39,954 nt of DNA from Candidatus Sulfopaludibacter sp. SbA3 (GTDB lineage: Bacteria; Acidobacteriota; Terriglobia; Bryobacterales; Bryobacteraceae): NCBI GenBank assembly GCA_945861625.1, contig CAMAVI010000023.1, positions 1-39,954 on the forward strand. The letters are read 5' to 3'. A model generated the notes under the pieces. The model saw nothing but the letters and a program-made list of their open reading frames with translations. It had not been told where the DNA came from and did no database searches. Position 1 is the first letter of the stretch. Every line of letters starts with the position of its first letter. The translations under genes and the position numbers were made by a program. Shown here in pieces: positions 7,174 through 22,186 of this stretch.

Positions 7174-7210
7174 CGGATACAAGTTTAGCAAGCGGAAGAG
7201 GGTCGCATTC

Positions 7211-8911: not shown

Positions 8912-8914
8912 GGC

Positions 8915-9045
8915 CTATAACTCTAGCAAATACCCCTTCTTGCCCACGTTCATCGCGCACGTCGCGCCCATTTGCGTGATGAGGTGTTCGGCTTCATGGA
9001 TGTGGCCGCAGAAGAAGTGGCCGGGCTGGCGTTCTTCGATGAACT
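8915..9045 (-). pseudogene. Remnant: 3' end of a metallophosphoesterase gene (second copy)
   Basis: Read on the minus strand, this stretch encodes EFIEERQPGHFFCGHIHEAE, then a further ~20 residues, and stops at 8915-8917. It matches the last ~43 codons of the intact phosphoesterase gene (9583-9713) at about 85% of bases. There are no gaps and the reading frame is kept, including the metal-binding CGHIHE motif. By hand count more than half of the changed codons are synonymous. It has no start or N-terminal part and is cut off at about 9045, 34 bp from the hicA stop. It is therefore the leftover end of a homologous gene, separated from the intact copy by hicBA. Confidence 0.85.
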
Positions 9046-9078
9046 CCGGGTTCGCTGACGCACCCTTCGGCGACCACG

Positions 9079-9324
9079 CTACTCCGCGAAGAAAAACGGG
9101 GCCAAGGCGGATTCGGGGATATAGCGGATAGCCTGGCGGAAGATGGCGTGTAGCGTGCCCTTGTCCACTTCCTTGTGCGCCACGATGGTCAGCGTTTGAC
9201 GCGTCCCGTTCGCGAGCACACGCCGCAGTTTCACATGACTGCCGCGTTGGGTGTGCGTCGTAGATCCGAATTGCGACAGGATCCGCAGCAGGTCGTCGCC
9301 TGAGAGCGTCCTCAGTTTTGGCAT
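9079..9324 (-). CDS. hicA: HicA-family toxin (mRNA interferase)
   Basis: An 81-aa protein with the HicA double-stranded-RNA-binding-like fold: PKLRTLSGDDLLRILSQFG at the start, the catalytic-histidine segment TQRGSHVKLRR, and the late block TIVAHKEVDKGTL. HicA toxins cleave mRNA and tmRNA when not held by HicB. The start codon overlaps the hicB stop by one base (TGATG), so toxin translation depends on antitoxin translation. The C-terminus (ESALAPFFFAE) is slightly longer than in typical members. It is followed by a phosphoesterase 3'-end remnant. Confidence 0.88.
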   Translation of the reverse strand: MPKLRTLSGDDLLRILSQFGSTTHTQRGSHVKLRRVLANGTRQTLTIVAHKEVDKGTLHAIFRQAIRYIPESALAPFFFAE

Positions 9325-9548
9325 CAGGCCACTGCGTCTAGCTCCATGGTGACAACTACCGCCGGATGCTGCGCGATACCCAGTTCCGCGAGGTCTTCGC
9401 CTTCCAGATGCAGCCCAATCGCCTCGCGAATATTCGCGGTAACCTCATCTAGCGTGCTGCCTTCGGTGACCACTGGGAGGTCCAAGCACTCGGCCACGTA
9501 CTTGGCCTCGCCTCGAAAAACACGAACCTGGATGGTTCTGCGCAGCAT
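9324..9548 (-). CDS. hicB: HicB-family antitoxin
   Basis: A 74-aa protein of the short HicB type, which has a partial RNase H-like fold that binds and neutralises HicA. Typical sequence is KYVAECLDLPVVTEGSTLDE followed by a helix with REAIGLHLEG. No separate DNA-binding domain is visible at the C-terminus, so any autoregulation would need another contact. The ATG at 9548 is preferred, although an in-frame GTG at 9563 would add MYTGG. It lies about 35 bp downstream of the intact phosphoesterase gene and is coupled to hicA by a one-base overlap. Confidence 0.87.
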   Translation of the reverse strand: MLRRTIQVRVFRGEAKYVAECLDLPVVTEGSTLDEVTANIREAIGLHLEGEDLAELGIAQHPAVVVTMELDAVA

Positions 9549-9582
9549 GCCCCCAGTGTACACCGGCCTGTTTACTACACGC

Positions 9583-10179
9583 TTAGATTTCCAGCAAATA
9601 CCCCTTCTTGCCCACGTTCATCGCTCGTGTGGCGCCCATTTGGGTGACGGTGCCTTCGGCTTCGTGAATGTGTCCGCAGAAAAAGTGCGCGGGCTGATGT
9701 TCTTCGATGAATGCGCGCACGCTGCGGCTGCCGGCGTGAAGTCCTTCGCGGATGCGGTCGAGCGGCGTTCCTAGCGGCGGGGAGTGGCAGATCAACACCT
9801 GCGGCTTCCACTCCGCGAAGTGCGCGAGGCGCTCGGCGATTTGCACGTCGCTGTATTCGCCGGGCGTATCGAAGGGAGTCGGCGTTGAATAACCGAGGCC
9901 CGCGAAGCGCACGCCGCCGATCTCCGCCTTCTCGCCGTGGAAATCCACAAAACCGAATTCGCGGCAAAAGGTCTCGATGTCCCGCACGGACTCGTGATTG
10001 CCAGGCAACACGTACACACGTCCGGCACGCGGCTTCATGATGTCTCCCATGGTGCCGAGCCCGCGCGCCCAGCTCACCAAGTCGCCGGCCGCGAAGTAGG
10101 CGTCCGCCTCGATGGCCATCAACTTTTCGAGCGCGGCTTTGTCATTGTGGATGTCGGAGAAAATCAGAGCCTTGGCCAT
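9583..10179 (-). CDS. Metallophosphoesterase
   Basis: A 198-aa calcineurin-like phosphoesterase. It shows the full metal-binding set: FSDIHND (residues 7-13), AAGDLVSW, LPGNHES, ICHSPPLGT and CGHIHEAEG. These proteins hydrolyse phosphodiester or phosphomonoester bonds with two metals; the substrate cannot be told here. It starts one base after the FN3 lipoprotein stop and probably belongs to the hslVU operon transcript. Its last ~130 bp (9583-9713) have a diverged second copy at 8915-9045, beyond hicBA. This suggests that the present 3' end may have arrived together with the TA pair. Confidence 0.88.
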   Translation of the reverse strand: MAKALIFSDIHNDKAALEKLMAIEADAYFAAGDLVSWARGLGTMGDIMKPRAGRVYVLPGNHESVRDIETFCREFGFVDFHGEKAEIGGVRFAGLGYSTPTPFDTPGEYSDVQIAERLAHFAEWKPQVLICHSPPLGTPLDRIREGLHAGSRSVRAFIEEHQPAHFFCGHIHEAEGTVTQMGATRAMNVGKKGYLLEI

Positions 10180-10180
10180 A

Positions 10181-11131
10181 CTATTGGGCGGTTATCTCCA
10201 CGACGATGGAGCGCGCGCTCTCATTGCCGGTGATGTCGATGGCGGTCACGGAATAACTATATTTCTTGCCGATCTCGACGGCGCGGTCACTATAGGTGGG
10301 CGCGGGAATCGAATCAGCCACGCGTTCGAACACGCCTCCGTCCGTGGAGCGGTACACGTGGTAGCCCAGGAAATCGCTTTCCTCACTGCGCTCCCATACG
10401 AGCTCGATGGAGTTGATTCCCGGTACTCCGGCGAGTCCATTCGGCGCAGCCGGAGGAAACGTGTCGCGAGGGGTAATGTTCACGGCCACCGATAGTTCGC
10501 TTTGGCGCAACGGGGTTTCAATCGCCTGGATAAAGTACTTGTATGACGTTCCGTATTCCACGCTGGTGTCGATGTATTCCGCTTTTTCCGACTCCGCGAC
10601 CATCGCCATGGGAGCATCGCTGACGGCCCGGAAGATCCAGAAATGCGGAGCCGCGTTTGACCACGTTAGGCGAACGGCCTCCGGCACGGTGACTGCCCGG
10701 ATATCCGCGGGCGGTGGCAAGGGCGGTCCCACCGGCAGTTGGAACGCATTGGATGGCTCCGACGCCTTCCCCTTGGGTCCTGTGGCGCGAACAGTCAGCG
10801 TGACCTGCTTGCCGGCCCAATCCTGGGACGGAAAATCGTAGCGCACGGCGCCTGGGCCGCCGGCGGGAACTTCGTAGTCTTTGGCCGATGATCCGGCGGC
10901 AGACGCGTGTAGCTGGGTGGCCTGCAAGCTAGTCAAGCCCAGCCCTTCGGTGGTCAAGGGAGGTACCGTGAACTCCACCAGGATCTTGCCGCCGTACTGC
11001 GCCGCGCGCAGATCCGAAATTCGCCCCGGGATATCCAGAGTGGGGGGCTTGGGGTCGCCAACGTAAGCGCAGCCAGATAGCGCTGCGCTTGCCAACAGCA
11101 CGGCTGCGGGAAGGGCGGAGAAGCGTCTCAC
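10181..11131 (-). CDS. Fibronectin type III domain lipoprotein
   Basis: A 316-aa protein with a lipoprotein signal: [21 protein letters not shown], lipobox LSGC, with Cys21 as the likely acylated residue. Two FN3-like beta-sandwich domains are visible in the second half. The clearest runs from [10 protein letters not shown] through [13 protein letters not shown] to [10 protein letters not shown] less clear beta-rich segment precedes them. It is probably anchored in the cell envelope and acts in binding or adhesion; no catalytic motif is seen. The start is a GTG that overlaps the hslU stop by four bases (GTGA), which is unusual company for a cytoplasmic protease. Confidence 0.8.
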
Positions 11132-12495
11132 AGAATATAGCGGCTCAGGTCCTGATCCTTCACGATCTCGGCCAGTTGTTTGCGCACGTAAGCGGCATCG
11201 ATTTTGACGGTCTTCTTCTTTAGATCCGGACCCTCGAAGGAAATCTCCTCGAGCAGCTTTTCGAGGATGGTGTGCAGGCGGCGCGCGCCGATGTTTTCAG
11301 CGTTCTCGTTCACGCGGGTCGCGAACGCGGCGATCTCCTGAATGGCGTCGTCGGTAAAGGTCAGCTTGATGCCTTCGGTATCGAGCAGGGCCTGATACTG
11401 CTTGAGCAGCGCGTTCTTGGGCTCCTTGAGAATGCGGATGAAATCGGCTTCGGTCAGCGACTTCAGCTCGACGCGGATCGGGAAGCGGCCTTGTAATTCG
11501 GGAATGAGGTCACTGGGTTTGGAAACATGAAACGCGCCGGCGGCAATGAAGAGGATGTGATCGGTGCGCACGAAGCCATAGCGCGTGTTGACGGTGGTGC
11601 CTTCCACGATGGGTAGGATGTCGCGCTGGACGCCCTCGCGGCTGACATCGGGACCATGGCCGCCTTCGCGCCCGGCGATCTTGTCGATTTCATCCAGGAA
11701 TACGATACCGTTGCGCTCCAGGCGCTCGATGGCGATGCGCGTGACCTGATCGATGTCGACGAGTTTTTGCTCTTCCTCAGTCACCAAGTAATCCAGCGCC
11801 TCACCCACGCGCATTTTGCGCTTCTTGGTGCGGCCGCCGAACAAACCGGGCAGGACATCCTTGAGATTGATGTCCATCTCCTCCATGCCACCCACGGCGG
11901 AAATTTCGAAGTTCGGTCCGCGCTCTTTGACATCGACTTCCACCATGCGGTCGTCGAGCTTTCCGGCGCGCAGCCGGTCGCGCAACTTCTCGCGCGTGCG
12001 CTCGATGCTCTCGGGCGCTTCGGCATTCTCCGTCGGCGGGGGCATCAACAGATCCAGCAGGCGCTCTTCGGCACTGCGCTCGGCGCGTTCGCCCACTTCG
12101 TTCAGGCGCTCCTCGCGGACCATGTCGATGGAGATCTCAACCAGATCGCGGATCATGGACTCGACATCACGGCCCACGTAGCCGACCTCGGTGAACTTGC
12201 TGGCCTCGACTTTGAGGAACGGCGAGTTGGCCAGCTTCGCCAGCCTGCGCGCGAGTTCCGTTTTGCCGACGCCGGTGGGCCCAATCATCAGGATGTTCTT
12301 GGGCATGACTTCTTCGGCCATTTCCGGATCGAGCTTCTGGCGGCGCACGCGGTTGCGCAGGGCGATGGCGACAGCCTTCTTGGCATCCCCCTGGCCGATG
12401 ACGTACTTGTCGAGTTCGCGCACAATCTCGCGCGGCGTCAGTTCGTCCAGCAACGGCGTGTCATCGGCGGATTGCGCGGGCAGATAGATGACCAT
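11128..12495 (-). CDS. hslU: ATP-dependent protease ATPase subunit HslU
   Basis: A 455-aa AAA+ unfoldase that feeds proteins into the HslV peptidase. Motifs are Walker [10 protein letters not shown] (residues 72-80), the pore loop GYVGRD, Walker [13 protein letters not shown] and the C-terminal tail DLSRYIL, which docks into HslV. The I-domain between Walker A and B is present. The length is usual. The ATG overlaps the hslV stop by one base (TAATG), giving strict 1:1 coupling, and the stop overlaps the following lipoprotein start. Confidence 0.96.
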
Positions 12496-13034
12496 TAGCC
12501 GAGTTCCTCATAGATGACGCTGTCATTGGTATAGATACAGATCTTGCCGGCGATGGCCATGGCCTTTTCGACGATCTCGTGCGCGGAAAGTTGCGTATTT
12601 TCCATGAGTGCGGTGGCGGCGGACTTGGCGAAGGGTCCGCCGGAACCGATGGCGGCGATATTGTCGTCAGGTTCAATCACGTCGCCGTTGCCGCTGAGAA
12701 TAAAAATGTCGGTGGGATCGGCGACCAGCAGCAGCGCTTCCAGGTGCCGCAGCATACGGTCGGTGCGCCAGTCCTTGGCGAGTTCGACCACGGAACGCGA
12801 TAGATTGCCGTTGTACTGTTCCAGCTTCGACTCAAAGCGGGTGAACAAGGCGAACGCGTCGGCAGTGGCGCCCGCGAAACCGGCGATGATCTTCCCGTTG
12901 TAGAGCCGCCGCAATTTCTTGGCGGAGGCTTTCAGGACTTCGGAACCGAGCGTGACTTGGCCGTCGCCCGCCATCACTACTTTGCCGTCCTTGCGGACGC
13001 ACAGGATGGTCGTGGAGCGTATGCGTTCTTTCAT
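12495..13034 (-). CDS. hslV: ATP-dependent protease peptidase subunit HslV
   Basis: A 179-aa threonine peptidase of the HslUV (ClpYQ) complex in the cytoplasm. Autocleavage of the first seven residues (MKERIRS) would expose the catalytic Thr of [10 protein letters not shown]. Other family blocks are [20 protein letters not shown] and [13 protein letters not shown]. It is the first gene of the hslV-hslU-lipoprotein-phosphoesterase run. Its start is 62 bp from the divergent pentapeptide gene, so both promoters must lie in that gap. No clear -35/-10 pair was picked out. Confidence 0.96.
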
Positions 13035-13096
13035 GGGGTGTAATTTTCAGTGTGACACAACGGTTCCGGGGATGCCGTTTGACGATATATTCAGAC

Positions 13097-13831
13097 ATGG
13101 CCAATCCCAAGCATGTCGCGATGCTTAAGAAGGGTGTCGATTCATGGAACGTGACTAGAATCACGGAGTGGTTGTTGTTTCCAGATCTCAGTTCGGCGGA
13201 TTTGAGCATGATGAATCTCTGTGGTGTGAATTTCGACAATGCGGACCTCAACTGCGCGAGTCTCCGCCGGGCCGACCTCTCGGGGGCGCATCTCAAGAAT
13301 GCCAACCTCACAGGGGCGGATCTCAAGGGGGCGGGTCTAGTTAGGGCGTCCTTTAACTTCGCGCAACTCGCCGGCGCCGATCTATTAGGAGCGGTATTCG
13401 GAGATACCGCACTTGGCGGCGTTGACCTGAGCGCTGCGAGAGGACTCGATGCCACGTGGCATGACGTTCCATCGATTCTTGGAGTTGACACGATCCTCAA
13501 ATCCGGCGGTCGGATCCCGGACATATTTCTGCGCGGCTGCGGTTGCGATCCTTTGATCCAGAAGATATTGGTGGGGGACGGCCATCCAACTCCGACGCTT
13601 TTACGGAATGGATATCCCGGCGTCACAACCCTCTACAGCGGTGTTTCATCAGTTACGCCACCGAGGACAAGCCATTCGTCGAGCGGCTCCAGAAGGCGCT
13701 CAACGAGCGGGGCGTGGCCTATTGGTATGCTCCCGAACATGGCCGGTGGGGCGTGGAACTCCATCGTCAGATCGATCTTGAAATCTCGTTGCGGGATCGG
13801 ATTCTGCTCGTGTGCAGCGAGGTCTCACTGA
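13097..13831 (+). CDS. Pentapeptide-repeat protein (N-terminal half of a frameshifted TIR protein)
   Basis: From the ATG at 13097 (MANPKHVAMLKKGVDSWN) this frame encodes about 15 pentapeptide repeats of the A(D/N)LXX type (residues 30-135), which form a right-handed beta helix. A linker containing DTILKSGGRIPDIFLRG follows. Related proteins continue straight into a TIR domain, but here the TIR domain lies in another frame. Homology in this frame stops near LYS at 13631-13639, and the remaining residues to 13831 are Ser/Arg-rich read-through with no family likeness. The most likely cause is a one-base loss (or two-base gain) near 13640. A GTG at 13052 is possible but adds residues unlike the family start. 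Confidence 0.7.
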   Translation: MANPKHVAMLKKGVDSWNVTRITEWLLFPDLSSADLSMMNLCGVNFDNADLNCASLRRADLSGAHLKNANLTGADLKGAGLVRASFNFAQLAGADLLGAVFGDTALGGVDLSAARGLDATWHDVPSILGVDTILKSGGRIPDIFLRGCGCDPLIQKILVGDGHPTPTLLRNGYPGVTTLYSGVSSVTPPRTSHSSSGSRRRSTSGAWPIGMLPNMAGGAWNSIVRSILKSRCGIGFCSCAARSH

Positions 13832-14067
13832 CCAAAGATTGGGTTGCCTACGAAATAGAGCGCGGTATCGAACAGGAAAAGAAGCGGAATGCACGGGTCA
13901 TCTTCCCGATCATGATCGATGATGCGCTTCTTAACTGGAACCACCCGCGTGCCACACGAGTTCGAGAGGTACTTGCGGCAGATTTCCGTGACGCAACTGA
14001 AGGCCACGGGTTTGAAAAGAAGATGCCGAGGCTGTTGAAGGAGCTCGGTTATGGCGAGGGGCAGTAG
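13543..14067 (+). CDS. TIR-domain protein (C-terminal half of a frameshifted pentapeptide-TIR protein)
   Basis: From about 13642 this frame encodes a TIR domain: CFISYATEDKPFVERL, then WYAPEHGRWG, RILLVCSEVSL and DWVAYEIERG. The Glu in WVAYEIE sits where NAD-cleaving TIR domains have their catalytic glutamate. The ATG at 13543 lies inside the pentapeptide frame, and its first ~30 residues have no family likeness. The true product was therefore probably one ~322-aa pentapeptide-TIR protein from 13097 to 14067. Such proteins are seen in bacterial defence or signalling contexts. If translated alone from 13543 the domain could still fold. The gene converges with the MFS 3'-end remnant 30 bp downstream. 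Confidence 0.68.
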   Translation: MRSFDPEDIGGGRPSNSDAFTEWISRRHNPLQRCFISYATEDKPFVERLQKALNERGVAYWYAPEHGRWGVELHRQIDLEISLRDRILLVCSEVSLTKDWVAYEIERGIEQEKKRNARVIFPIMIDDALLNWNHPRATRVREVLAADFRDATEGHGFEKKMPRLLKELGYGEGQ

Positions 14068-14097
14068 GCGCTTGCGTGCGCCACGCGGCTTCAACTG

Positions 14098-14175
14098 CTA
14101 CTCTTCCTCAAACGGAATATCCGGCCGCAAGCGGAGAGTCAGCACGGCGCCAATGAGCAGTCGCACGACGAAGGC
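14098..14175 (-). pseudogene. Remnant: 3' end of an MFS transporter gene (second copy)
   Basis: On the minus strand this encodes VVRLLIGAVLTLRLRPDI, then PFEEE and a stop at 14098-14100. It matches the last ~23 codons of the intact MFS gene (14813-14882), including a run of 30 identical bases. The differing codons are partly synonymous (CTC/CTG, ACT/ACC, ATT/ATC). The match ends next to the brnA stop at 14178. It is the left-behind end of a homologous transporter gene, separated from the intact one by brnTA. Confidence 0.82.
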
Positions 14176-14177
14176 CG

Positions 14178-14498
14178 CTACGCCGGCCCGCGAACCTGGC
14201 GCGTCCGCTGAGGCGTATCTTGCGCCATGGCGCGTTGTAAGAGTGTCTTGATAACGGCCTGCCGGCTAACATTCAGACGCGCGGCGCGGGCATCGAGGTC
14301 CCGTAGCATCCCTTGGGTCAGGTCGACGTTCACGCGGCGAACTGGCCGAACCACTGTAAAGTCGTTGGTGAAGAATCTGGAGACGTCCTCCCCGCGCGTT
14401 GCCATTCTCGCAATTTCATCGGCGGTTGGCTTGGCCTGGGTTGGCTTGGCTGCGGTTGGCCTAGCTACGGTTGGCTTACGTTTAGATTTGTGTGGCAT
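14178..14498 (-). CDS. brnA: BrnA-type antitoxin
   Basis: A 106-aa antitoxin. The block DEIARMATRGEDVSRFFTND followed by RRVNVDLTQGMLRDLDARAA and LNVSRQAVIKTLLQRA matches the ribbon-helix-helix antitoxins that pair with BrnT. The helix NVSRQAVIKTLL is the DNA-binding dimer part, so it probably represses its own operon. The first 26 residues are a low-complexity basic stretch made of four five-residue units (PTVAR, PTAAK, PTQAK, PTADE) encoded by a 15-bp tandem repeat at 14421-14482. The start overlaps the 3' end of brnT by 17 bases. Confidence 0.85.
   Translation of the reverse strand: MPHKSKRKPTVARPTAAKPTQAKPTADEIARMATRGEDVSRFFTNDFTVVRPVRRVNVDLTQGMLRDLDARAARLNVSRQAVIKTLLQRAMAQDTPQRTRQVRGPA
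14421..14482 (-). repeat. 15-bp tandem repeat inside brnA (about four units)
   Basis: Units share the core GGTTGGCTTGGC or close variants on the plus strand and encode five-residue steps of the form P-T-x-A-(K/R). The period is a multiple of three, so unit gain or loss would lengthen or shorten the BrnA N-terminal tail without breaking the frame. Confidence 0.7.
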
Positions 14499-14754
14499 AG
14501 GCGTACTCCTCCTGTTTGGTGGCTGTCCAGGCCGTCACCAGGCGATAGTATTCTCCGTGCCGGTCGCGTCGAATCTCAAAGATGACCGAGCACCGGCAAC
14601 CTTGGCTCCACCCGATGGCGCGATATTGCTCGGGATTGTCATTCTTCCTGTCGACGATGTAGGCTTGGTCAAATATCTCTTGCGCTTCCTCGAGACTCAC
14701 GCCGTGTTTCCGCCGGACCTCCAGGTTCTTACCGGCGTCAAAGTGAAAACGCAT
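14482..14754 (-). CDS. brnT: BrnT-family toxin
   Basis: A 90-aa RelE/ParE-fold ribonuclease toxin. Family features are the start MRFHFDAGKN, the block RRKHGVSLEEAQEIFDQ, a central RAIGWSQGCRCSVIFEIRR strand pair, and the C-terminal RLVTAWTATKQEEY. BrnT stops growth by cleaving RNA unless bound by BrnA. The toxin is encoded before the antitoxin, as usual for brnTA, with a 17-base overlap. The pair lies 58 bp downstream of the intact MFS gene and directly upstream of the MFS 3'-end remnant. Confidence 0.85.
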   Translation of the reverse strand: MRFHFDAGKNLEVRRKHGVSLEEAQEIFDQAYIVDRKNDNPEQYRAIGWSQGCRCSVIFEIRRDRHGEYYRLVTAWTATKQEEYAYATQI

Positions 14755-14812
14755 CTGGTATATAACGGTTTACTATCCAGAGCCCGATTGCGTCATTGGA
14801 TCGAGTGACGCG

Positions 14813-16093
14813 TTATTCCTCAAACGGAATATCCGGCCGCAAGCGCAGGGTCAGCACGGCGCCGATGAGCAGCAGCACGACGGACGCAACAAAGGGAACC
14901 ACCCAGCTTCCGGTGCGGTCCACCAGGTAGCCAAACATGGCGGGGGAAATCAGGCCGGCGGCTCCGAAGCCGAAGTTCATCATGCCGCTGGCAGTGCCCG
15001 CGTAACGTGGCGCGATGTCCATGGGGATGGCCCAGATCGGCGCGACAATCAGTTCGGAAAAGAAAAACGCCAGCGAGAGGCCGATGGTGGCGACCGTCAG
15101 ATCGTGGATTAGCATGACCGGTAATAGGAAGACAAACGCGCCCAGGAATCCCACCACCAGCACATTGCGGCGCGCGATCCGCACGCTGCCAGTCCGGCGG
15201 AGCAGGCGGTCCGTCATCACCCCGCCGACGGTGTCGCCGATGACGCCCGCGGATAGCACACCCATGGAGAACAGCGCCGACGATTGCAGGTTCAAGTGGT
15301 AGTTCTCATAGAAGAACGCCGGGATCCAGCTTTGGAATAACCAAAGGGTCCAACCGTAGCAAAAGTCGACCATGGTGACGGGGAGAATGCGCCGGCCGAG
15401 CCGCAGCCACGGAATTTCGGGGCGGGACTTGGCGGATCGCGCGGGAAGGGTCGCCAGTTCGGCGGCCGTGATGCCCGGATGTTCGTGCGGATCGTCCCGG
15501 TAGAACCACATCCACACCACCAGCCACAGAAGACTCGCGATGCCCAGGACCACGAACGAAATTCGCCAAGAGATGAACAGCAACATGCTGGCCATAAGCA
15601 GCGGCGTCACGGCGTTGCCGATGCGCGCGAAGGCGTGGGTGATGCCCTGTGCGAAGCCCCAGCGGCTGGCCGGGGTCCAGATGGCCATGGCGCGGGTGGC
15701 GGTGGGGAGCGCAGCTCCTTCCCCGAATCCCAACGCGATGCGCAGCGCGACGAGGGACGCAAAACCACCGATGGCGCCGGTCAGTGCCGTTGACACGCCC
15801 ACGATTAAACAGCCGACGAAAAGCGTACGGCGCACGCCGAAGCGGTCGCCGATCCAGCCACCCACCAATTGAAAAAACGCATAGGGGAGGGAAAACGCCG
15901 AAAACGCTATGCCCAACTGGGTATTGGTCAGTCCCAGATCCTTCATCATCATGGGACGCGGGGTGTTGAGGCTGACGCGGTCCATGAAAAGGATGAAATA
16001 CAACACGCACAGCAGGCCCAGTACGGCTCCCGGTGTCGTGAGCAGACCGAACAGGTGAGGCTTCCGCGCGGTTTCTGTTTGTGTGGTGTTCAC
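14813..16093 (-). CDS. MFS transporter (anion:cation symporter-like)
   Basis: A 426-aa major facilitator protein with about 12 membrane segments. The loop GGWIGDRFGVRRTLFVG matches the MFS signature between helices 2 and 3, and GFGEGAALPTATRAMA is typical of the ACS family, which takes up organic anions. The start is a GTG at 16093, 21 bp after the stop of a TauD-type dioxygenase, so the pair likely handles uptake and oxidation of one substrate. The last ~70 bp are duplicated at 14098-14175 beyond brnTA, so the present 3' end may be of foreign origin. Confidence 0.88.
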   Translation of the reverse strand: MNTTQTETARKPHLFGLLTTPGAVLGLLCVLYFILFMDRVSLNTPRPMMMKDLGLTNTQLGIAFSAFSLPYAFFQLVGGWIGDRFGVRRTLFVGCLIVGVSTALTGAIGGFASLVALRIALGFGEGAALPTATRAMAIWTPASRWGFAQGITHAFARIGNAVTPLLMASMLLFISWRISFVVLGIASLLWLVVWMWFYRDDPHEHPGITAAELATLPARSAKSRPEIPWLRLGRRILPVTMVDFCYGWTLWLFQSWIPAFFYENYHLNLQSSALFSMGVLSAGVIGDTVGGVMTDRLLRRTGSVRIARRNVLVVGFLGAFVFLLPVMLIHDLTVATIGLSLAFFFSELIVAPIWAIPMDIAPRYAGTASGMMNFGFGAAGLISPAMFGYLVDRTGSWVVPFVASVVLLLIGAVLTLRLRPDIPFEE

Positions 16094-16114
16094 TGTCGTG
16101 TGCTCATGAAGGCC

Positions 16115-16978
16115 TCATGCGGCCGGCGGCGCACTACCCTTGATCTGAGTGCGATGCATCACACGGCGGGAGTTAGCATCGAACGGATCGCGGCGGTGCA
16201 TAGTGCAGCGATTATCCCACAGCACCACGTCGCCCACTTTCCAGACGTTATGCCAGGCGAATCTTTCATCGGACGCATGCGTCCACAGTTCGTCGAGCAG
16301 CGCTTCGGATTCCGCCAGCGGCATTCCGTCGATGTAGGCGTTGCGGCGGCGGCCCAGATACAGCATGCGGCGTCCGGTCTCCGGATGCGTGCACACCAGC
16401 GGGTGATAGACGCCGGGAGAAGTCACGGGATCGTCGACAGCGGTCACGCCCTGGCGCACGTAACCGCCGCTGTTATAAGTTCCATCGTGCTTCACGCGAA
16501 GCCCCGCCACGCGCCGTTTAGTCTCGGCGGGCAGGGCGTCGTAGGCGCGATACATGTCGGTGAAATAGGTATTGCCGCCCGCGGCCGGAATTTCCAGCGC
16601 GTAGAGCATGCTGGCTTTCGGAGGATCCGCGAGGTACGACATGTCGGTGTGCCAGGAGGCTTCGCCCGCGCCGAGACTGCCGATGGGTTCGCCTTTTTCG
16701 ATGACGTTGGAGACCACGTAAATTTCCGGTAGGCCTTCCACGAAGCGGCGTCCGGTTTCCTGGACAGGCGCCCAGTCGAGATCACCCAAGCGGCGGCTAA
16801 ACGCGATCAAGTCTTGGTCGGTGAGCTGCTGGCCACGCACCAGGATCACCGAGCGATCCAGCCAAGCCTTGTAAATCGCGGCAAAATCGTCGTCATTGAG
16901 ATGCCGGAGATCCACACCCTGGATCTCCGCGCCCAGCGTTTTGTCCGACGGAAGCACCCGCACGCTCGAAGAGATCAT
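16115..16978 (-). CDS. TauD/TfdA-family Fe(II)/2-oxoglutarate dioxygenase
   Basis: A 287-aa non-haem iron oxygenase. The metal facial triad is visible as HTD in GEASWHTDMSYLAD and the distal His in CTMHRRDPFD. The 2-oxoglutarate-binding Arg is in SRRVMHRTQIKG, just after it. The N-terminal segment (LGAEIQGVDLRHL) is typical of the family. Members hydroxylate sulfonates, aryloxyacids or other acids; the substrate here is unknown. The frame can start at a TTG (16990), but the ATG at 16978 is preferred. It heads a two-gene unit with the MFS transporter. Confidence 0.87.
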   Translation of the reverse strand: MISSSVRVLPSDKTLGAEIQGVDLRHLNDDDFAAIYKAWLDRSVILVRGQQLTDQDLIAFSRRLGDLDWAPVQETGRRFVEGLPEIYVVSNVIEKGEPIGSLGAGEASWHTDMSYLADPPKASMLYALEIPAAGGNTYFTDMYRAYDALPAETKRRVAGLRVKHDGTYNSGGYVRQGVTAVDDPVTSPGVYHPLVCTHPETGRRMLYLGRRRNAYIDGMPLAESEALLDELWTHASDERFAWHNVWKVGDVVLWDNRCTMHRRDPFDANSRRVMHRTQIKGSAPPAA

Positions 16979-17062
16979 CGCAGGATCCAATTTAGCAGAT
17001 TGGGCTTTGACAAATGCGCAGACGCCGCGGGATGTACAATTGATGGCGGCTAGGAGGCCAGA

Positions 17063-18274
17063 ATGAGATATCCGCGACTCAGCGTTGCCGTGCTTACCAT
17101 CGTTGGAATCGGAGCGTTAGTGTTGGCTTCCGTTAGGCTCAACGCGGATGGATCTCCGGGGCCACTGGCCCAGTCCTGCGGCGTGACTCCCGCGGCGACT
17201 TCCGGCCAAGCCGGCCGCGAGCTTCCACAGTTTCCCCCCGGCCAATATCCCGTCAAATTGCCGCCGATGTCCTTGCTGGGCGCGCGCAATGATCTTCCGA
17301 ATCCATATCGACCCGGCGTGAGTTGGGGACGGTTGCCGGAGGGACGGAAGTGGGGATCGAGCGCGAGCATCACCGTTGCTCCCGACGGCAAACTCTGGGT
17401 CGTTGACCGGTGCGGAGTCTCCGGAGCCGGCGGCACCACCTGCGGTGGCGCGAATGCGACCGTCAATCCGGTCTTTCAATTTGATCCCTCCGGCAAGCTG
17501 CTGAAGTCGTTCGGCGCCGGCATGTTTGTCAGCCCCCACAAATTGTCGGTGGATAGAGAGGGAAACCTGTGGCTTGCCGACAACGGGGGGCACCAGGTTT
17601 TCAAGATGAATCAAGACGGCAAGGTTCTGCTGACGCTGGGCAAGAAGGGCCTGGCGGGGGCTGGGAATGATGAGTTCGATGCGCCCACCGACGTCGCCAT
17701 CGCCCCGAATGGCGACATATTCGTTAGCGACGGACACACAGGTGGCGGTACGGCGGCCGGCAACGCCCGCATCATGAAGTTCGGTAAGGACGGAAAGTTC
17801 ATTAAGACCTGGGGCAGGAAAGGCATGGGTCCGGGTGAATTCGACGTGGTCCACACTCTTGCCTTCGACTCGAGGGGCAGGCTCTTCGTCGGCGACCGGC
17901 AGAATAACCGGATTCAGATCTTTGACCAGGACGGCAAGTGGATCGCCCAGTGGTTCCAGTTTGGCCGGCCCAGCGGCATGTACATCGACAAGAACGACGT
18001 CATCTATGTGGCCGACTCGGAATCCAGAGATGGCCGGACCAACACCGGACAATTCGCATTGCCGCGCACTGGTTATTCGTACAACCTGGGCGCCCAACGA
18101 GGCATTCGGATCGGGAGCGCCCGCGATGGCTCCGTCAGATACTTCATTCCGGACCCCTGTCCGTATCCCTACGCGGGCGGGTCGAGCCTGGCGGAAGGCA
18201 TCACCACGGATTTCGAGGGCAACGTTTACGGGGCGGATTTCCTCGGCGACGTTAGAAAATTCGTGAAGAAGTGA
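17063..18274 (+). CDS. Exported NHL-repeat (beta-propeller) protein
   Basis: A 403-aa protein with an N-terminal signal or anchor (MRYPRLSVAVLTIVGIGALV) followed by NHL repeats from about residue 105. Clear blades include KLSVDREGNLWLADNGGHQV, PTDVAIAPNGDIFVSDGH and LAFDSRGRLFVGDRQNNRI. The fold is a six-bladed propeller as in peptidylglycine alpha-amidating lyase-like proteins. No lyase active-site set can be confirmed, so a binding or enzymatic role outside the cytoplasm is left open. A strong ribosome binding site AGGAGG (17052-17057) sits five bases before the ATG at 17063. It is divergent from the dioxygenase gene and convergent with lutC. Confidence 0.8.
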   Translation: MRYPRLSVAVLTIVGIGALVLASVRLNADGSPGPLAQSCGVTPAATSGQAGRELPQFPPGQYPVKLPPMSLLGARNDLPNPYRPGVSWGRLPEGRKWGSSASITVAPDGKLWVVDRCGVSGAGGTTCGGANATVNPVFQFDPSGKLLKSFGAGMFVSPHKLSVDREGNLWLADNGGHQVFKMNQDGKVLLTLGKKGLAGAGNDEFDAPTDVAIAPNGDIFVSDGHTGGGTAAGNARIMKFGKDGKFIKTWGRKGMGPGEFDVVHTLAFDSRGRLFVGDRQNNRIQIFDQDGKWIAQWFQFGRPSGMYIDKNDVIYVADSESRDGRTNTGQFALPRTGYSYNLGAQRGIRIGSARDGSVRYFIPDPCPYPYAGGSSLAEGITTDFEGNVYGADFLGDVRKFVKK

Positions 18275-18298
18275 GCGGGGGGGCGCCTCACCGCAGAA

Positions 18299-18871
18299 TC
18301 ACTGTGCAACTAAAATCACTGTACAACTACGGGCACCGTGCGCGCCCATGACCAGGGACTGTTCGATGTCGGCGGTTTTCGATGGACCTGAGATAAGAAT
18401 GCCGAAACTATTCGGGCGCCACTGAATTCGCTCATAGGCCTGGTGGAGATTATCCACGATTTGATCGGAGGGAACGACCAGGATCAGGTGCTGCGCGATG
18501 ACGAAGATGGCTCGATGAGGCGCGAGAATTTCGCCGGGTACCCATACGGCTCCGTTTTCAGCGACTCCGAACTCGCCCGGAATAACCGCGACGTCGACGC
18601 CATCGAGTTCATGGGGGTCTTGAATCGCGTGGAGATCGACGTTCCGGGAGGGAACGCCGGGCACCAGTGACGCCACCTTTGGCGCGTTCGCGTAGACGTC
18701 GAGACTGGCCAGATCGCCGCCGCGCACCAGCCTTCCGCCCACTGCGGTCAAAGTCTCCTCAAACTGTTTCAGCGGGTCGGCGTAGCGGGTTCCAATCATC
18801 GGGGCCGGACGAGATGCGGGCGGTACTACGCTCTTGCGAAGTGAATCCAAAATGGCGTTGCGGCTACTCAT
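18299..18871 (-). CDS. lutC: LUD-domain protein, lactate utilization LutC
   Basis: A 190-aa LUD-domain protein of the LutABC complex that oxidises L-lactate to pyruvate. It shows the family block VDVAVIPGEFGVAENGAVWV and the end SGPSKTADIEQSLVMGAHGA. The reading frame is open far upstream through lutB, but the ATG at 18871, giving MSSRNAILDSLRKS, is the real start. It overlaps the lutB stop as ATGA. It is the last gene of lutABC. Its C-terminal codons contain a near-repeat of AATCACTGT(G/A)CAACTA on the plus strand. Confidence 0.88.
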   Translation of the reverse strand: MSSRNAILDSLRKSVVPPASRPAPMIGTRYADPLKQFEETLTAVGGRLVRGGDLASLDVYANAPKVASLVPGVPSRNVDLHAIQDPHELDGVDVAVIPGEFGVAENGAVWVPGEILAPHRAIFVIAQHLILVVPSDQIVDNLHQAYERIQWRPNSFGILISGPSKTADIEQSLVMGAHGARSCTVILVAQ

Positions 18872-20232
18872 GACAGTTCTTTCCCGATGAGATCGCGAAA
18901 ACTTTCTTTGGGCATTGCGGGCAACTCGCGCTGGACTCCCCAACGATTCCAGGCTCCGTAAACCAGGCCGCGCGGCAGAACCGGCATCACCGCGCGCAGC
19001 AGACTCCCACTCATCCGATACAGCCAAGGCCGTGACAGGACGAAGCCCAGGCCCGCCATCCCCAAGCGCTTTTGGAGCGGGACCACTTTGAGATCCACCA
19101 GTTTTTTGCGGAAGGCCAGCAACTGCTGATGGAGATCGATCTTCACCGGACAAACATCGGTGCAAGAGCCGCACAGGCTCGACGCAAAAGGAAGAGACGC
19201 GTACTTTTCGGGATCGCGCTGCGGAGCGAGAATCGATCCAATCGGACCGGGGACGATGTATCCATAGCTGTAACCGCCACTGCGCCGGTAGACTGGGCAC
19301 GTGTTCATGCAGGCGCCGCAGCGAATGCAGCCGAGGGAACTCCGGAAGGTCGGTTGTCCGAGGATGCGGCTGCGGCCGTTATCCACGATAACGACGTGCA
19401 TCTCACCACCGGGAAGGGGCCCATTGAAGTGGGATGTATAAGTAGTGACGGGTTGGCCGGTGCCGCTCCGCGCCAGCAGGCGGAGGAACACCGCGAGGTC
19501 TTCGGCGCGCGGGATGAGCTTCTCCATGCCCATGCAAGCGATATGCAGCGGCGGGAGACTGGTGCCCATATCCGCATTGCCTTCATTGGTGCAAACGACG
19601 ACACCTCCGGTTTCGGCGACGGCAAAATTCACGCCGGTGAGTCCGGCCTGCGCCTCCATGAACTTGCTCCGCAGGTGGCCGCGGGCCGCTTCGGTGAGGT
19701 ACTTGGGATCCGACGCGCCCTTCTCGGTGCCGAGTTCGATGTGGAATAGCTCGCCGATGTCTTCCTTCTTCAAGTGAATGGCCGGCAGCACGATATGGCT
19801 GGGCGGTTCCTTGCGTAGCTGCACGATGCGTTCGCCGAGATCCGTGTCGGTGACCTCAATGCCCCGGGCCTCCAGGTACGGGTTGAGGTGGCACTCTTCG
19901 GTGAGCATCGATTTCGACTTCACCAGCCGCGTGACGTTGTGGCTCGCGAGGATCTGATGAACGATGGCGTTGTGCTCGGCCGCATCGCGCGCCCAATGCA
20001 CGTGAATGCCATTGGCGGTGGCATTGCGCTCGAACTCTTCCAGGTAATCTGCGAGTCGGGAGAGCGTGTGCGTTTTGATGGCGGATGCCGCTTCGCGCAG
20101 CGCTTCCCATTCGGGGATGCTCGCCGCCTGCCGGTCGCGCTTGACCCGCACGAACCAGAGGGACTCGTCGTGCCAGTGCGTCCGGCTTTCATTGGCGGCG
20201 AAAGCAGCCGCTTTTTCCGCGTGGCCGGTCAT
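18868..20232 (-). CDS. lutB: Lactate utilization iron-sulfur protein LutB
   Basis: A 454-aa protein with an N-terminal LUD domain (KSMLTEECHLNPYLEARGIE, ETGGVVVCTNEGNADM) and two 4Fe-4S ferredoxin motifs. These are CIRCGACMNTCPVYRR near residue 300 and CGSCTDVCPVKID near residue 350. It passes electrons from lactate within the cytoplasmic LutABC complex. The start overlaps the lutA stop (ATGA) and the end overlaps lutC, so the three proteins are made in a coupled set. Its length fits the LutB/LldF family. Confidence 0.93.
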   Translation of the reverse strand: MTGHAEKAAAFAANESRTHWHDESLWFVRVKRDRQAASIPEWEALREAASAIKTHTLSRLADYLEEFERNATANGIHVHWARDAAEHNAIVHQILASHNVTRLVKSKSMLTEECHLNPYLEARGIEVTDTDLGERIVQLRKEPPSHIVLPAIHLKKEDIGELFHIELGTEKGASDPKYLTEAARGHLRSKFMEAQAGLTGVNFAVAETGGVVVCTNEGNADMGTSLPPLHIACMGMEKLIPRAEDLAVFLRLLARSGTGQPVTTYTSHFNGPLPGGEMHVVIVDNGRSRILGQPTFRSSLGCIRCGACMNTCPVYRRSGGYSYGYIVPGPIGSILAPQRDPEKYASLPFASSLCGSCTDVCPVKIDLHQQLLAFRKKLVDLKVVPLQKRLGMAGLGFVLSRPWLYRMSGSLLRAVMPVLPRGLVYGAWNRWGVQRELPAMPKESFRDLIGKELS

Positions 20233-20978
20233 GCGAGCTGCGCTTTCTCCAGAATCTCCGCGACGTGCATCACCCGCTGCGCGCGCTCAGCGCGGCGGAT
20301 CAGGCCGTCCAGGTGCATCAGGCAGGACATGTCGTAGCCAACGATTACTTCGGCGCCGGCGCGCGCGTGATCCTCGATCCGGTCGCGGCCCATGAGGCAG
20401 GAGACGGCTTCCTCGTCCACGGCAAAGGCGCCGCCGAAACCACAGCACTCGTCGGGACGTAACAGGTCCACGATTTCGATGCCACGCAACTGCGAGAGAA
20501 GCTGGCGCACCTTGTTATAGGGGGCGGTCATCTGTTCCGAGGAGCGGGCCAGACGGAGTTCACGCAGGCCATGGCAGCTCATCTGAAGGCCGACCTTGAA
20601 GGGGAAGTCGCCGTCGATCTTCGTTACTTTGACGACGCCGGTCAGGTATTCGCAAAGCTCGAAAGTGTTGTCGCGAAGATGCTCGAAGCGCGGCTTGCCG
20701 TGCAGCCAGTGATCGTAATGGTTGCGCACCATGGAGACGCAACTGCCGGAGGGCGCGACCACGTGGTCGTACTTCCCGAAGATCGCGAGGAACCGTTCCG
20801 CCAACGGCCGCGCCGCTGCGTCACAACCGGAGTTGGCCATGGGCTGACCACAGCAAGTCTGCTCCGGGGGGAACTCCACGTTGAAGCCGAGCCGCCGCAA
20901 AATGCGCAAAGTGGCGAGGCCGACTTGCGGATAAAGCTGGTCGACGTAACAGGGTATGAATAAACCAACGCTGGGCAT
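20229..20978 (-). CDS. lutA: Lactate utilization Fe-S oxidoreductase subunit LutA
   Basis: A 249-aa protein with two cysteine-rich CCG domains: CCGQPMANSGC in the first half and DECCGFGGAF in the second. These are the hallmark of LutA and heterodisulfide-reductase-like subunits that hold Fe-S clusters. The N-terminus SVGLFIPCYVDQLYPQVG is typical. The ATG at 20978 is preferred over the TTG at 20990. It is the first gene of lutABC. No LysR- or GntR-type regulator gene is adjacent, so regulation cannot be inferred from neighbours. Confidence 0.93.
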   Translation of the reverse strand: MPSVGLFIPCYVDQLYPQVGLATLRILRRLGFNVEFPPEQTCCGQPMANSGCDAAARPLAERFLAIFGKYDHVVAPSGSCVSMVRNHYDHWLHGKPRFEHLRDNTFELCEYLTGVVKVTKIDGDFPFKVGLQMSCHGLRELRLARSSEQMTAPYNKVRQLLSQLRGIEIVDLLRPDECCGFGGAFAVDEEAVSCLMGRDRIEDHARAGAEVIVGYDMSCLMHLDGLIRRAERAQRVMHVAEILEKAQLA

Positions 20979-21030
20979 CCGCACTCTCAAGTGTTACATT
21001 CCCGGAACCGCCTGCGCCAATTCACCAAGC

Positions 21031-21552
21031 TCACTCGACGGGATGGCCTAATGCGGTGGCGTTGTCACGGACGCGAAGGTCGCGCGTGATGATTGTGAGG
21101 AGAGCGGGGGGATCGCCCAGGGCTTCCGCGGTAGCCAGATGAATGGCGTCTAGAGTGCGGATCGGTTCCATGGGGAAGGGGCGTCCGGCGTGAGCGAGGA
21201 TCGCATCGGTAACACTCACCACGTGACAACGCCGGGCAAACCTTTGCAGCGTGAGAATTGCCGCCCGCTCCTGCTGCGCTGTGATCCTTCCTGAGAGGCG
21301 GGCTCGCAATACGGCGCGGCTGGACTCGGCCAGCGTGAGTGCCGAAGTGACCGGCTGCCCCTGAGCACGAATGGAAGCTCTGGCTGCCGCATCGCCTTCA
21401 AGGATGGCCGCGATGAGCGCGCTTGATTCGATGTAGCGCCTCGATTTTATGTTGGGCACGGCAGGAGTGCCCCCAGCTGCAGTCGAGGAACGGACGGTCC
21501 GCCGAACGCGGCGGGAGGCAACCGGCTTACGCTTCGTCACGGACTGAGTCAA
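21031..21552 (-). CDS. PIN-domain toxin (VapC-like)
   Basis: A 173-aa PIN-domain ribonuclease. The first acidic position reads YIESSALIAAILEGD, with Glu where Asp is more common. The other acidic positions are in LTLAESSRAVLRA, RTLDAIHLATAEAL and ITRDLRVRDNA. About 40 basic residues precede the PIN core, longer than in most VapC toxins. The start is a TTG at 21552 (a GTG at 21540 is also possible), inside a 16-bp repeat that also holds the antitoxin stop. It follows the Phd/YefM-like antitoxin gene by 12 bases, making a type II TA pair. Confidence 0.85.
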   Translation of the reverse strand: MTQSVTKRKPVASRRVRRTVRSSTAAGGTPAVPNIKSRRYIESSALIAAILEGDAAARASIRAQGQPVTSALTLAESSRAVLRARLSGRITAQQERAAILTLQRFARRCHVVSVTDAILAHAGRPFPMEPIRTLDAIHLATAEALGDPPALLTIITRDLRVRDNATALGHPVE

Positions 21553-21588
21553 TCACGGCCGGAGTCAATCGCGGTCTAAGTCAATCAA
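21541..21588. repeat. Three 16-bp tandem repeats at the antitoxin/toxin junction
   Basis: Units are GGACTGAGTCAATCAC, GGCCGGAGTCAATCGC and GGTCTAAGTCAATCAA, sharing the core AGTCAATC. The antitoxin stop lies in the second unit and the toxin TTG start in the first. Sixteen is not a multiple of three, so gain or loss of a unit would change the frame relation between the two genes. Confidence 0.8.
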
Positions 21589-21843
21589 CGCCGCTGCCGT
21601 TCCCGGAGGGAGACGAATGTCCGGGCAGTTTTCCAGCGGATCACCAGACTCGTCGGGCGGGGTGATCACTCCGGAAGCGATGAGTTGATCGAACTGGGTG
21701 GTTCGGACTTTGCGGCCCGCCGCTGGCGGAACAAGTTCCGCCACTGCCCGCCCATGGGCAGTCACTACGATACGCTCTCCTCCTTCAATTCGCCGGATGT
21801 ACCGGCTGAGGTTGTCCTTCAATTCGCGGATTCCTGTTTCCAC
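21565..21843 (-). CDS. Phd/YefM-type antitoxin of a vapBC-like pair
   Basis: A 92-aa antitoxin with the Phd/YefM N-terminal DNA-binding fold (TGIRELKDNLSRYIRRIEGG, then ERIVVTAHGRAVAELVPP). The C-terminal toxin-binding tail ends AALIDLDRD. The start is a GTG at 21843, only six bases after a perfect TATAAT, so the mRNA may be leaderless. A 12-bp palindrome just upstream is a likely self-binding operator. It pairs with the PIN-domain toxin downstream. Confidence 0.85.
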   Translation of the reverse strand: METGIRELKDNLSRYIRRIEGGERIVVTAHGRAVAELVPPAAGRKVRTTQFDQLIASGVITPPDESGDPLENCPDIRLPPGTAAALIDLDRD

Positions 21844-21849
21844 GCTCTA

Positions 21850-21867
21850 ATTATAGCTACATGTAGC
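21850..21867 (-). promoter_or_regulatory. TA operon promoter with palindromic operator
   Basis: On the minus strand the perfect palindrome GCTACATGTAGC (21856-21867) runs directly into a consensus -10 box TATAAT (21850-21855). The antitoxin GTG start follows six bases later. An operator placed between -35 and -10 is a typical autoregulatory layout for TA operons. No good -35 is visible. The stop codon of the truncated mtgA also lies inside the palindrome. Confidence 0.6.
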
Positions 21868-22186
21868 CACGGAAAGCGCGAAGTGTGTCTCGTAAGCACA
21901 CCTGGCGGTTTACGGCCCAATAGAAGCCGCCGTCTTCCGCTGAAATCACCGCATGCCGCATCTCGGGAAAAATTCGTAACAGAGGCACGAACGTGCAGCG
22001 CTTCCGGTAGGGGGTACTCTTAAAGAGTGCTTCGATTCCCGGCTGCATCTGAACGCCCGTTGTCGGGGGATTCACCACGCGGAGACCCGCTAGAGCCAGA
22101 GCCCACGCGGCGTGCAATCCAACGATGAACAGCAGGAAATAAATAACGATCCGGCGTAACACTTCTCTATAGTTTCGCAAATGCAC
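21857..22186 (-). pseudogene. mtgA: Truncated monofunctional peptidoglycan glycosyltransferase (mtgA 5' part)
   Basis: The first ~84 residues match MtgA/GT51 glycosyltransferases: an N-terminal membrane segment (RIVIYFLLFIVGLHAAWALA), VVNPPTTGV, the block PYRKRCTFVPLLRIFPEMRH and AVISAEDGGFY, which contains the catalytic Glu. Homology then stops at about 21930. The last ~25 residues are unrelated, and the frame ends inside the vapBC-like operator. Most of the glycosyltransferase domain, including the FxxHxG part, is missing, so the product cannot be active. The break lies at the TA module, and no 3' part is seen in the window. The proposed start at 22186 overlaps the divergent antiporter start; the GTG at 22165 may be truer. 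Confidence 0.75.

What the first reader, a model, noticed from the sequence alone, without database searches (positions are those of the whole stretch)
8915..22186. Possible general mechanism: TA modules inserted by swapping a host gene's end
Three unrelated TA families (hicBA, brnTA, vapBC-like) in 13 kb all lie on the same strand as the host gene, directly after it, and all beside gene fragments. Two leave a duplicated 3' end and one leaves a truncated gene. The known parallel is integrative elements that restore the 3' end of a tRNA or protein gene on insertion, but no recombinase accompanies these pairs. A minimal mobile cassette made of a TA pair plus a replacement gene end, moved by homologous recombination at one side and illegitimate joining at the other, would explain all features and seems undescribed. 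The TA addiction effect would favour its retention.
Basis: inference. Interest (0 to 1): 0.72.

Follow-up and report, generated by a model that had tools for sequence, protein, structure and literature searches.

The report
Toxin-antitoxin pairs flanked by target duplications
In these soil bacteria small toxin-antitoxin gene pairs have been inserted at the edges of ordinary genes with a 40-250 base copy of the target left on the other side, so that the neighbouring gene stays whole; this had been described for restriction systems but seemingly not for toxin-antitoxin pairs.

Summary
hicBA and brnTA each sit between an intact gene end and a second, decaying copy of it (82% over 131 bp; 90% over 72 bp). 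The closest relative by the brnTA host protein (G002, 96%) has the empty site: one copy of the repeat, both flanks collinear. vapBC is different: shared with G002, no flanking repeat. The pattern is general: 14 of 99 TA seeds in genus stretches are bracketed (12 clean) against 1 of 857 genes in 60 stretches not centred on TA. It is not gene-end swapping: duplications also occur at 5' ends, on either strand and between genes, and substitutions mark the gene's copy as selected and the other as a relic. No recombinase is in the two window inserts, and I saw no common ends. Best reading: operon-sized TA fragments inserted with long, variable target duplication, as published for restriction-modification systems, surviving where the gene stays whole. 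Retention by addiction against repeat-mediated loss is inferred. Ku-dependent end joining appears not to be required.

The parts
8913..9046 (-). outer (relic) copy of the metallophosphoesterase 3' end
   Evidence: 81-82% to 9581-9714; encodes ...EFIEERQPGHFFCGHIHEAEHLITQMGATCAMNVGKKGYLLEL*
9079..9324 (-). hicA-like toxin
   Evidence: PF07927 2.4e-11
9324..9563 (-). partner ORF, hicB by position
   Evidence: no Pfam match; name from position only
9581..9714 (-). gene copy of the duplicated end
9583..10179 (-). intact host gene, calcineurin-like phosphoesterase
   Evidence: PF00149 3.1e-12; a match in 50 of 61 genomes searched
14104..14175 (-). outer (relic) copy of the 3' end of the gene 14813-16093
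   Evidence: 90% to 14816-14887; single copy in G002
14178..14498 (-). partner ORF, brnA by position
   Evidence: RHH_1 0.0052, below cut-off
14482..14754 (-). brnT-like toxin
   Evidence: PF04365 1.4e-10
14816..14887 (-). gene copy of the duplicated end
14813..16093 (-). intact host gene (called an MFS transporter by recall of its sequence; no family search was run on it)
   Evidence: 96% identical protein in G002
21031..21843 (-). PIN/Phd-type pair, considered and excluded from the pattern
   Evidence: shared with G002, no direct repeat
21857..22186 (-). 109-aa truncated ORF next to the PIN/Phd pair; breakpoint near 21912
   Evidence: (no Pfam match)

Best explanation
A short piece of DNA holding little more than one TA operon was joined into the chromosome at or near a gene edge, and 40-250 bp of target sequence ended up on both sides (insertion with long, variable target duplication). 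When the duplicated stretch covers a gene's end, the copy still attached to the gene keeps it whole and the other copy is left as a relic that decays. Shown: the insertion itself for brnTA (empty site in G002), the duplications and their variable length, the tight fit to the TA operon in most cases measured, and the enrichment for TA in the genus. Inferred: how the DNA was joined (most likely template switching or another illegitimate event, since Ku was not found in three genomes that hold 9 of the 12 bracketed HicA/BrnT seeds), and why TA dominate. My reason for the latter: such an insert can be lost precisely by recombination between its repeats, and the addiction effect removes the cells that lose it.
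For: Empty site: G002 (L070) joins the TIR-side flank (window 13420-14169, 85%) directly to the host gene and the genes before it (window 14811-21002, 89%) through one 71-bp copy of the repeat. A second site, L160 (DUF433/DUF5615 pair), has a single 115-bp copy joining both flanks in G011 at 71-75% identity. At the rpoD site of L192, G005 has only 149 bp between the last rpoD match and the next flank match, so no pair. Enrichment: HicA 9 of 59, BrnT 3 of 13, ParE 2 of 23, HicB 0 of 4, against 1 of 857 genes in 60 stretches of 1.135 Mb. Beyond the genus: 4 of 28 HicA loci of the class, after dropping L227 and setting aside the two of the genus. Decay of the outer copy: codon positions 17/21/32 against 6/5/30 for the gene copy. 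Tight fit: margin after the last stop codon 2-43 bp in 9 of 13 cases. Related pairs at different sites align over little more than the TA region. Ku: found in 20 of 23 genomes, not in G000, G002, G011.
Against: 85 of 99 TA seeds show no such repeats, so this is one route among several or fades with age. L078 (thrS) does not fit a recent in-situ duplication: the copies are less alike (0.797) than either is to G000 (0.873, 0.861). All differences together lean to codon position 3 (27/29/102, 15 cases, three of them non-TA), and those private to the outer copy slightly (32 of 70, p = 0.02), so some copies may have been diverged coding sequences when joined. Two relatives have the pair but no second copy of the gene end: G019 at the rpoD site of L192 and G000 at the site of L168; loss of the outer copy or another history must be assumed. 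G021 shows 0 of 8. In the GTDB loci the excess over neighbouring genes is weak (7 of 26 against 4 of 38, p = 0.086; the four lie in one interval of L270). Three non-TA inserts with long repeats exist (L090, L096b, L146). A transposase-like ORF (by recall) lies about 270 bp outside the L125 insert. Related pairs are only 70-82% alike, so shared non-coding ends could have become unrecognisable. No data on expression, toxicity or loss rates.
Confidence: 0.7

Rival explanations
1. Gene-end replacement by homology-facilitated illegitimate recombination: donor DNA from a relative carries a homologous gene end plus the TA; the end recombines homologously, the other side joins illegitimately, and the native end is displaced outwards.
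For: Third-position excess among all differences between copies (27/29/102); L078 copies about equidistant from G000. A comparable anchored model is proposed for toxin-immunity modules in Vibrio (PMC5361080, passages).
Against: Polarised changes put near-neutral change on the outer copy and coding-type change on the gene copy. For brnTA against G002 no site groups the outer copy with G002 (gene=outer 4, gene=G002 7, outer=G002 0), though these sites do not exclude a foreign outer copy. For L192 one site is shared by the two copies and differs in all six orthologues. It gives no reason for intergenic cases.
Confidence: 0.15
2. A dedicated element with its own or borrowed transposase moves the TA pairs.
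For: Operon-sized inserts with sharp borders; a transposase-like ORF near one insert (L125, by recall).
Against: No shared terminal or target motif seen by eye in 19 cases; duplications of 43-252 bp of variable length, unlike fixed short ones (recalled knowledge of DDE elements); related pairs align over little more than the TA region.
Confidence: 0.06
3. Chance repeats, paralogy or assembly artefacts.
For: Several local repeats were paralogues (for instance L133, L136, L165, L307); most of the genomes are in many contigs.
Against: Genes outside TA sites are rarely bracketed (1 of 857); borders are sharp; the empty site is seen in another genome; copies differ by up to 20%, so they are not one sequence assembled twice.
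Confidence: 0.04

Closest known systems
Insertion of restriction-modification systems with long target duplication (Nobusato 2000, Furuta 2010; neither read, seen through passages of PMC3874152 and PMC3031569)
   Same: insert without a known mobile element, long and variable duplication of the order of 100 bp, found by comparing close genomes, an addiction-type cargo
   Different: cargo is a type II TA operon, inserts of 0.45-1 kb in the measured cases; pattern measured here as an enrichment over other genes
Homology-facilitated illegitimate recombination, e.g. effector-immunity modules in Vibrio (PMC5361080, passages)
   Same: toxin-type cargo, displaced gene 3' ends, no recombinase in the module
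   Different: here the gene keeps a selected end of its own in most cases and 5'-end and intergenic duplications occur
Minimal mobile element (PMC3898611, passages)
   Same: whole-gene cassette between conserved genes, no mobility gene
   Different: MMEs are described as incorporated by homologous recombination alone; here a target duplication is left
Integrative elements that restore a gene end (recalled)
   Same: host gene stays intact and a displaced fragment lies beyond the insert
   Different: no integrase in the window inserts, no common attachment sequence seen, many unrelated host genes

Membership tests
Insertion with long target duplication | empty site with a single copy of the repeat in a close genome | tested here: met
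   for brnTA; for L160 in a more distant genome; not available for the window hicBA (G002 has no match to the host gene)
Insertion with long target duplication | duplication long and variable, order of 100 bp | tested here: met
   43-252 bp over the listed cases
Insertion with long target duplication | no known mobile element in the insert | tested here: met
   window inserts are filled by the TA region; in the other inserts none was recognised among the ORFs listed, of which only part was run against Pfam
Insertion with long target duplication | cargo is a restriction-modification system (the published cases) | tested here: not met
   TA pairs; so a variant, not a member in the strict published sense
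Homology-facilitated illegitimate recombination | one joint lies in homologous DNA from a donor, so that one copy is foreign | tested here: inconclusive
   not seen in most cases; L078 compatible
Gene-end-restoring integrative element | integrase gene in the insert | tested here: not met
   the two window inserts hold only the TA ORFs
DDE transposon | terminal inverted repeats and fixed short duplication | tested here: not met
   variable long duplications; no terminal motif seen by eye
Type II toxin-antitoxin pair | toxin family match plus adjacent partner | tested here: met
   PF07927, PF04365; partner named by position
Type II toxin-antitoxin pair | toxicity and neutralisation | not testable with these tools
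   needs expression assays

The most novel reading that the evidence does not exclude
Addiction-locked insertion: bacteria capture small DNA pieces with long target duplications all the time, these inserts are normally erased by recombination between the repeats, and TA operons are the ones that remain because loss kills the cell. TA pairs would then be their own minimal mobile unit, needing no transposase, and the duplicated gene end a fossil of each arrival. In line with it, the three non-TA inserts have repeats of 95-97% identity while TA inserts range from 80 to 98% (post hoc, 3 against 16, p = 0.011; L092 with its PIN gene, 82%, was not in the list). A bolder variant, capture of a TA transcript as cDNA (margin of 2-9 bp after the stop in 6 of 13 cases), is not excluded but has no direct support.
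Probability: 0.35. Interest if true: 0.78.

Novelty: new variant of a known kind. Interest (0 to 1): 0.62.

Why it matters
How chromosomal TA pairs spread without plasmids, phages or transposons is an open question. A dated footprint (the duplicated gene end and its decay) lets single arrivals be recognised, counted and aged, and makes the addiction hypothesis testable: pairs in fresh duplications should resist loss, dead pairs should vanish. It also joins TA and restriction systems under one mode of gain.

Tried and rejected
Considered and dropped: gene-end targeting (5'-end, opposite-strand and intergenic cases); a shared cassette end or target motif (by eye); Ku-dependent capture (no Ku match in G000, G002 and G011; G002 is only 65% complete); vapBC as a third case; a link between Ku absence and bracketing (9 of 35 against 3 of 37, p = 0.06, related genomes), left as a hint. 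G000:C68 as donor of the outer phosphoesterase copy was considered (that copy is cut at residue 145) and not supported.

Local repeats not counted as inserts. Judged paralogues after looking at the ORFs: L073, L110, L130, L133, L136, L165. Judged from length, number of copies or flank similarity only: L118, L126, L153, L155, L169, L182, L307. L227 dropped because its repeat is a second hicB. L291 and L313 have long repeats but no gene counted as bracketed; I take them for paralogues without proof. Short-spaced repeats in L079, L092, L103, L115 and L127 were not pursued. Doubtful among the 14 bracketed seeds: ParE in L160 (between HNH-gene copies) and L129 (1.9-kb insert with a partial brnT); without them 12 of 99. 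L120 (42-bp repeat, 3.3-kb insert) lay beyond the limits and is not in the counts.

Limits. Seeds were a part of the hits: 66 of 170 HicA and 15 of 76 BrnT matches tallied for the genus, 26 of 131 ParE, 4 of 11 HicB of G000, weighted towards G000, G002, G005, G011 and G021. Control genes come from crude ORF calls. The nearest to a size match is: 7 of 253 control genes up to 180 aa were bracketed, six of these seven in inserts with a TA-type gene. The 60 control stretches were picked by hand by contig and position, away from places already fetched, so they hold few of the listed TA hits. Identities for the TA and non-TA comparison, and the TA limits, were entered by hand from earlier calls.
Full report
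What is there. In the window, two TA-like operons lie on the minus strand directly after an intact gene. The hicA-like toxin 9079-9324 (PF07927, 2.4e-11) and its partner ORF 9324-9563 follow a phosphoesterase gene (9583-10179); the brnT-like toxin 14482-14754 (PF04365, 1.4e-10) and its partner ORF 14178-14498 follow a gene that I call MFS by recall of its sequence (14813-16093). Beyond each pair lies a second copy of the host gene's 3' end: 131 bp at 82% and 72 bp at 90%. The inserts are 534 and 640 bp, of which the TA region takes 485 and 577. hicB and brnA are names by position only.

The third pair. The PIN/Phd pair at 21031-21843 has no flanking repeat. G002 has it too (87%), after genes that match window 14811-21002 and an extra 0.8 kb, while on the other side the match stops at 21912 and G002 has a different gene. 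The truncated ORF is therefore a breakpoint, and the pair should not be counted with the other two.

Empty site. Of the 61 genomes searched with the MFS protein, G002 is nearest (96% identical). Its contig C82 matches window 13420-14169 at 85% and 14811-21002 at 89%, and the two matches overlap by 71 bp in G002: one copy of the repeat, no brnTA. So brnTA arrived in the lineage of this genome, or was lost from G002 by exact recombination between the repeats; the decay of the outer copy does not decide between the two, but loss would itself show that the repeats work as an exit. G002 has no match to the phosphoesterase, so the hicBA site could not be compared there. In G006 the phosphoesterase end lies next to the gene of window 6063-7190 without hicBA or the KAP-type ATPase gene.

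How general. I took stretches from 15 genomes of the genus around part of the hits to the Pfam models for HicA, BrnT, ParE and HicB (stretches). A self-comparison for direct repeats of 40-350 bp with inserts of 200-3000 bp bracketed 14 of 99 seeds: HicA 9 of 59, BrnT 3 of 13, ParE 2 of 23, HicB 0 of 4; 12 further seeds were left out because they lay near an end of a stretch. Two of the 14 are doubtful (ParE in L160, BrnT in L129). Among 841 other genes in the same and 20 control stretches 12 were bracketed (p = 3e-8 against the seeds); six of these 12 ORFs lie in four inserts that hold a TA-type gene (L092 PIN; L114 DUF433 with a sub-threshold DUF5615; L125 PIN just under its cut-off; L168 PemK), the others in L090 (two), L126, L146 and L182 (two). 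In 60 stretches not centred on TA (1.135 Mb), 1 of 857 genes was bracketed, in L146, of unknown function; Fisher p = 9e-14. In the wider class, 5 of 30 HicA loci were bracketed, 4 after removal of L227; two of the 30 are from the genus and not bracketed, so 4 of 28 outside it. There the comparison with neighbouring genes is weak (4 of 38, p = 0.086), all four in one interval.

What the cases look like. Host genes include those I recognise, by recall of their sequence, as rpoD (L192), a ribosomal-S1-type gene (L087), thrS (L078), acetate kinase (L254) and a NuoG-type gene (L242). The duplicated stretch is a 3' end in most, a 5' end in L078, L082, L096, L146, L225 and L242, and intergenic in L125 and L265. 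The TA lies on the strand of the host gene in many and opposite in L096, L097, L168, L192 and L254. This is what remains if insertion can happen anywhere but must leave the gene whole. Pairs of related sequence at different sites align over little more than the TA region (L087 and L192, L097 and L115, L096 and L173; L082 and L126 with 47 bp before it), at about 70-73% identity, so that non-coding ends may have become unrecognisable. I saw no common border motif in 19 cases.

Which copy is old. Over 15 cases, three of them non-TA, the differences between copies fall 27/29/102 on codon positions 1/2/3. With one orthologue each to polarise them (11 cases), changes private to the outer copy are 17/21/32 and those private to the gene copy 6/5/30. 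The gene copy evolved as a gene, the outer one nearly freely. A mild third-position excess remains (32 of 70, p = 0.02), and thrS in L078 stands out: the two copies are less alike than either is to G000. For brnTA the sites are compatible with duplication in place but do not prove it. At L192 one site is shared by both copies and differs in all six orthologues. So import of a diverged end may explain single cases but does not look like the rule. At two sites a relative has the pair without a second copy of the gene end (G019 at the L192 site, G000 at the L168 site), which asks for loss of the outer copy or a separate history.

Mechanism. Shown: one clear empty site, long variable duplications, tight fit to the operon (margin after the last stop 2-43 bp in 9 of 13), TA enrichment in the genus. 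Inferred: the joining reaction. Ku is found in 20 of 23 genomes of the genus, but not in G000, G002 (65% complete) or G011, which hold 9 of the 12 bracketed HicA/BrnT seeds, so Ku-dependent end joining seems dispensable. Template switching during replication, or illegitimate joining of taken-up fragments, would give variable duplications. TA enrichment may come from addiction: an insert between direct repeats can be lost exactly, and only those whose loss is punished persist. [quoted passage not shown] The higher identity of the repeats around the three non-TA inserts fits but is few and post hoc.

Known or new. [quoted passage not shown] also PMC3031569, passages). I did not read the original papers, and the one tried is not held. 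For TA pairs I found no report in the listings of searches; they cover only an open-licence library, and of some only the top was shown (15 of 20 papers, 15 of 152, 10 of 360). I therefore file it as a new variant of a known kind.

One result left out before, the pair without a second copy in G019, is now told, and the confidence of the best explanation is lowered from 0.72 to 0.70 for it.

Noticed in passing
L069 4845-5282 (G000:C68): A second, decayed phosphoesterase copy (68%, two stops) ends at residue 145, followed by ORFs that look transposase-like (by recall) on the other strand.
   Followed up: partly
window 7211-8911: A KAP-type P-loop ATPase gene (PF07693, 2.5e-34) starts directly beyond the outer phosphoesterase copy; in G006 both it and hicBA are absent from this place.
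   Followed up: partly
window 13543-14067: A TIR-domain gene (PF13676, 3.4e-20) converges on the brnTA site and is also there in G002.
   Followed up: no
L070 6942-7755 (G002:C82): An extra 0.8 kb beside vapC in G002 holds an ORF that looks hicB-like by recall, without a flanking repeat.
   Followed up: partly
G000, G002, G011: The three genomes of the genus without a Ku match have more bracketed HicA/BrnT seeds (9 of 35 against 3 of 37, p = 0.06).
   Followed up: partly
L192 and L227: hicBA pairs sit after an rpoD-like gene end (by recall) in two genomes, G013 and G188, the latter of another family of the class.
   Followed up: no
L096 7681-10187: One host gene carries two inserts: hicBA at its 5' end and an Imm50 gene (PF15594, 5.6e-16) with a 203-bp duplication at its 3' end.
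   Followed up: partly
L247: A contig titled Bordetella parapertussis has the length of G014:C21 of this genus and an overlapping range, so the record's name is probably wrong.
   Followed up: no
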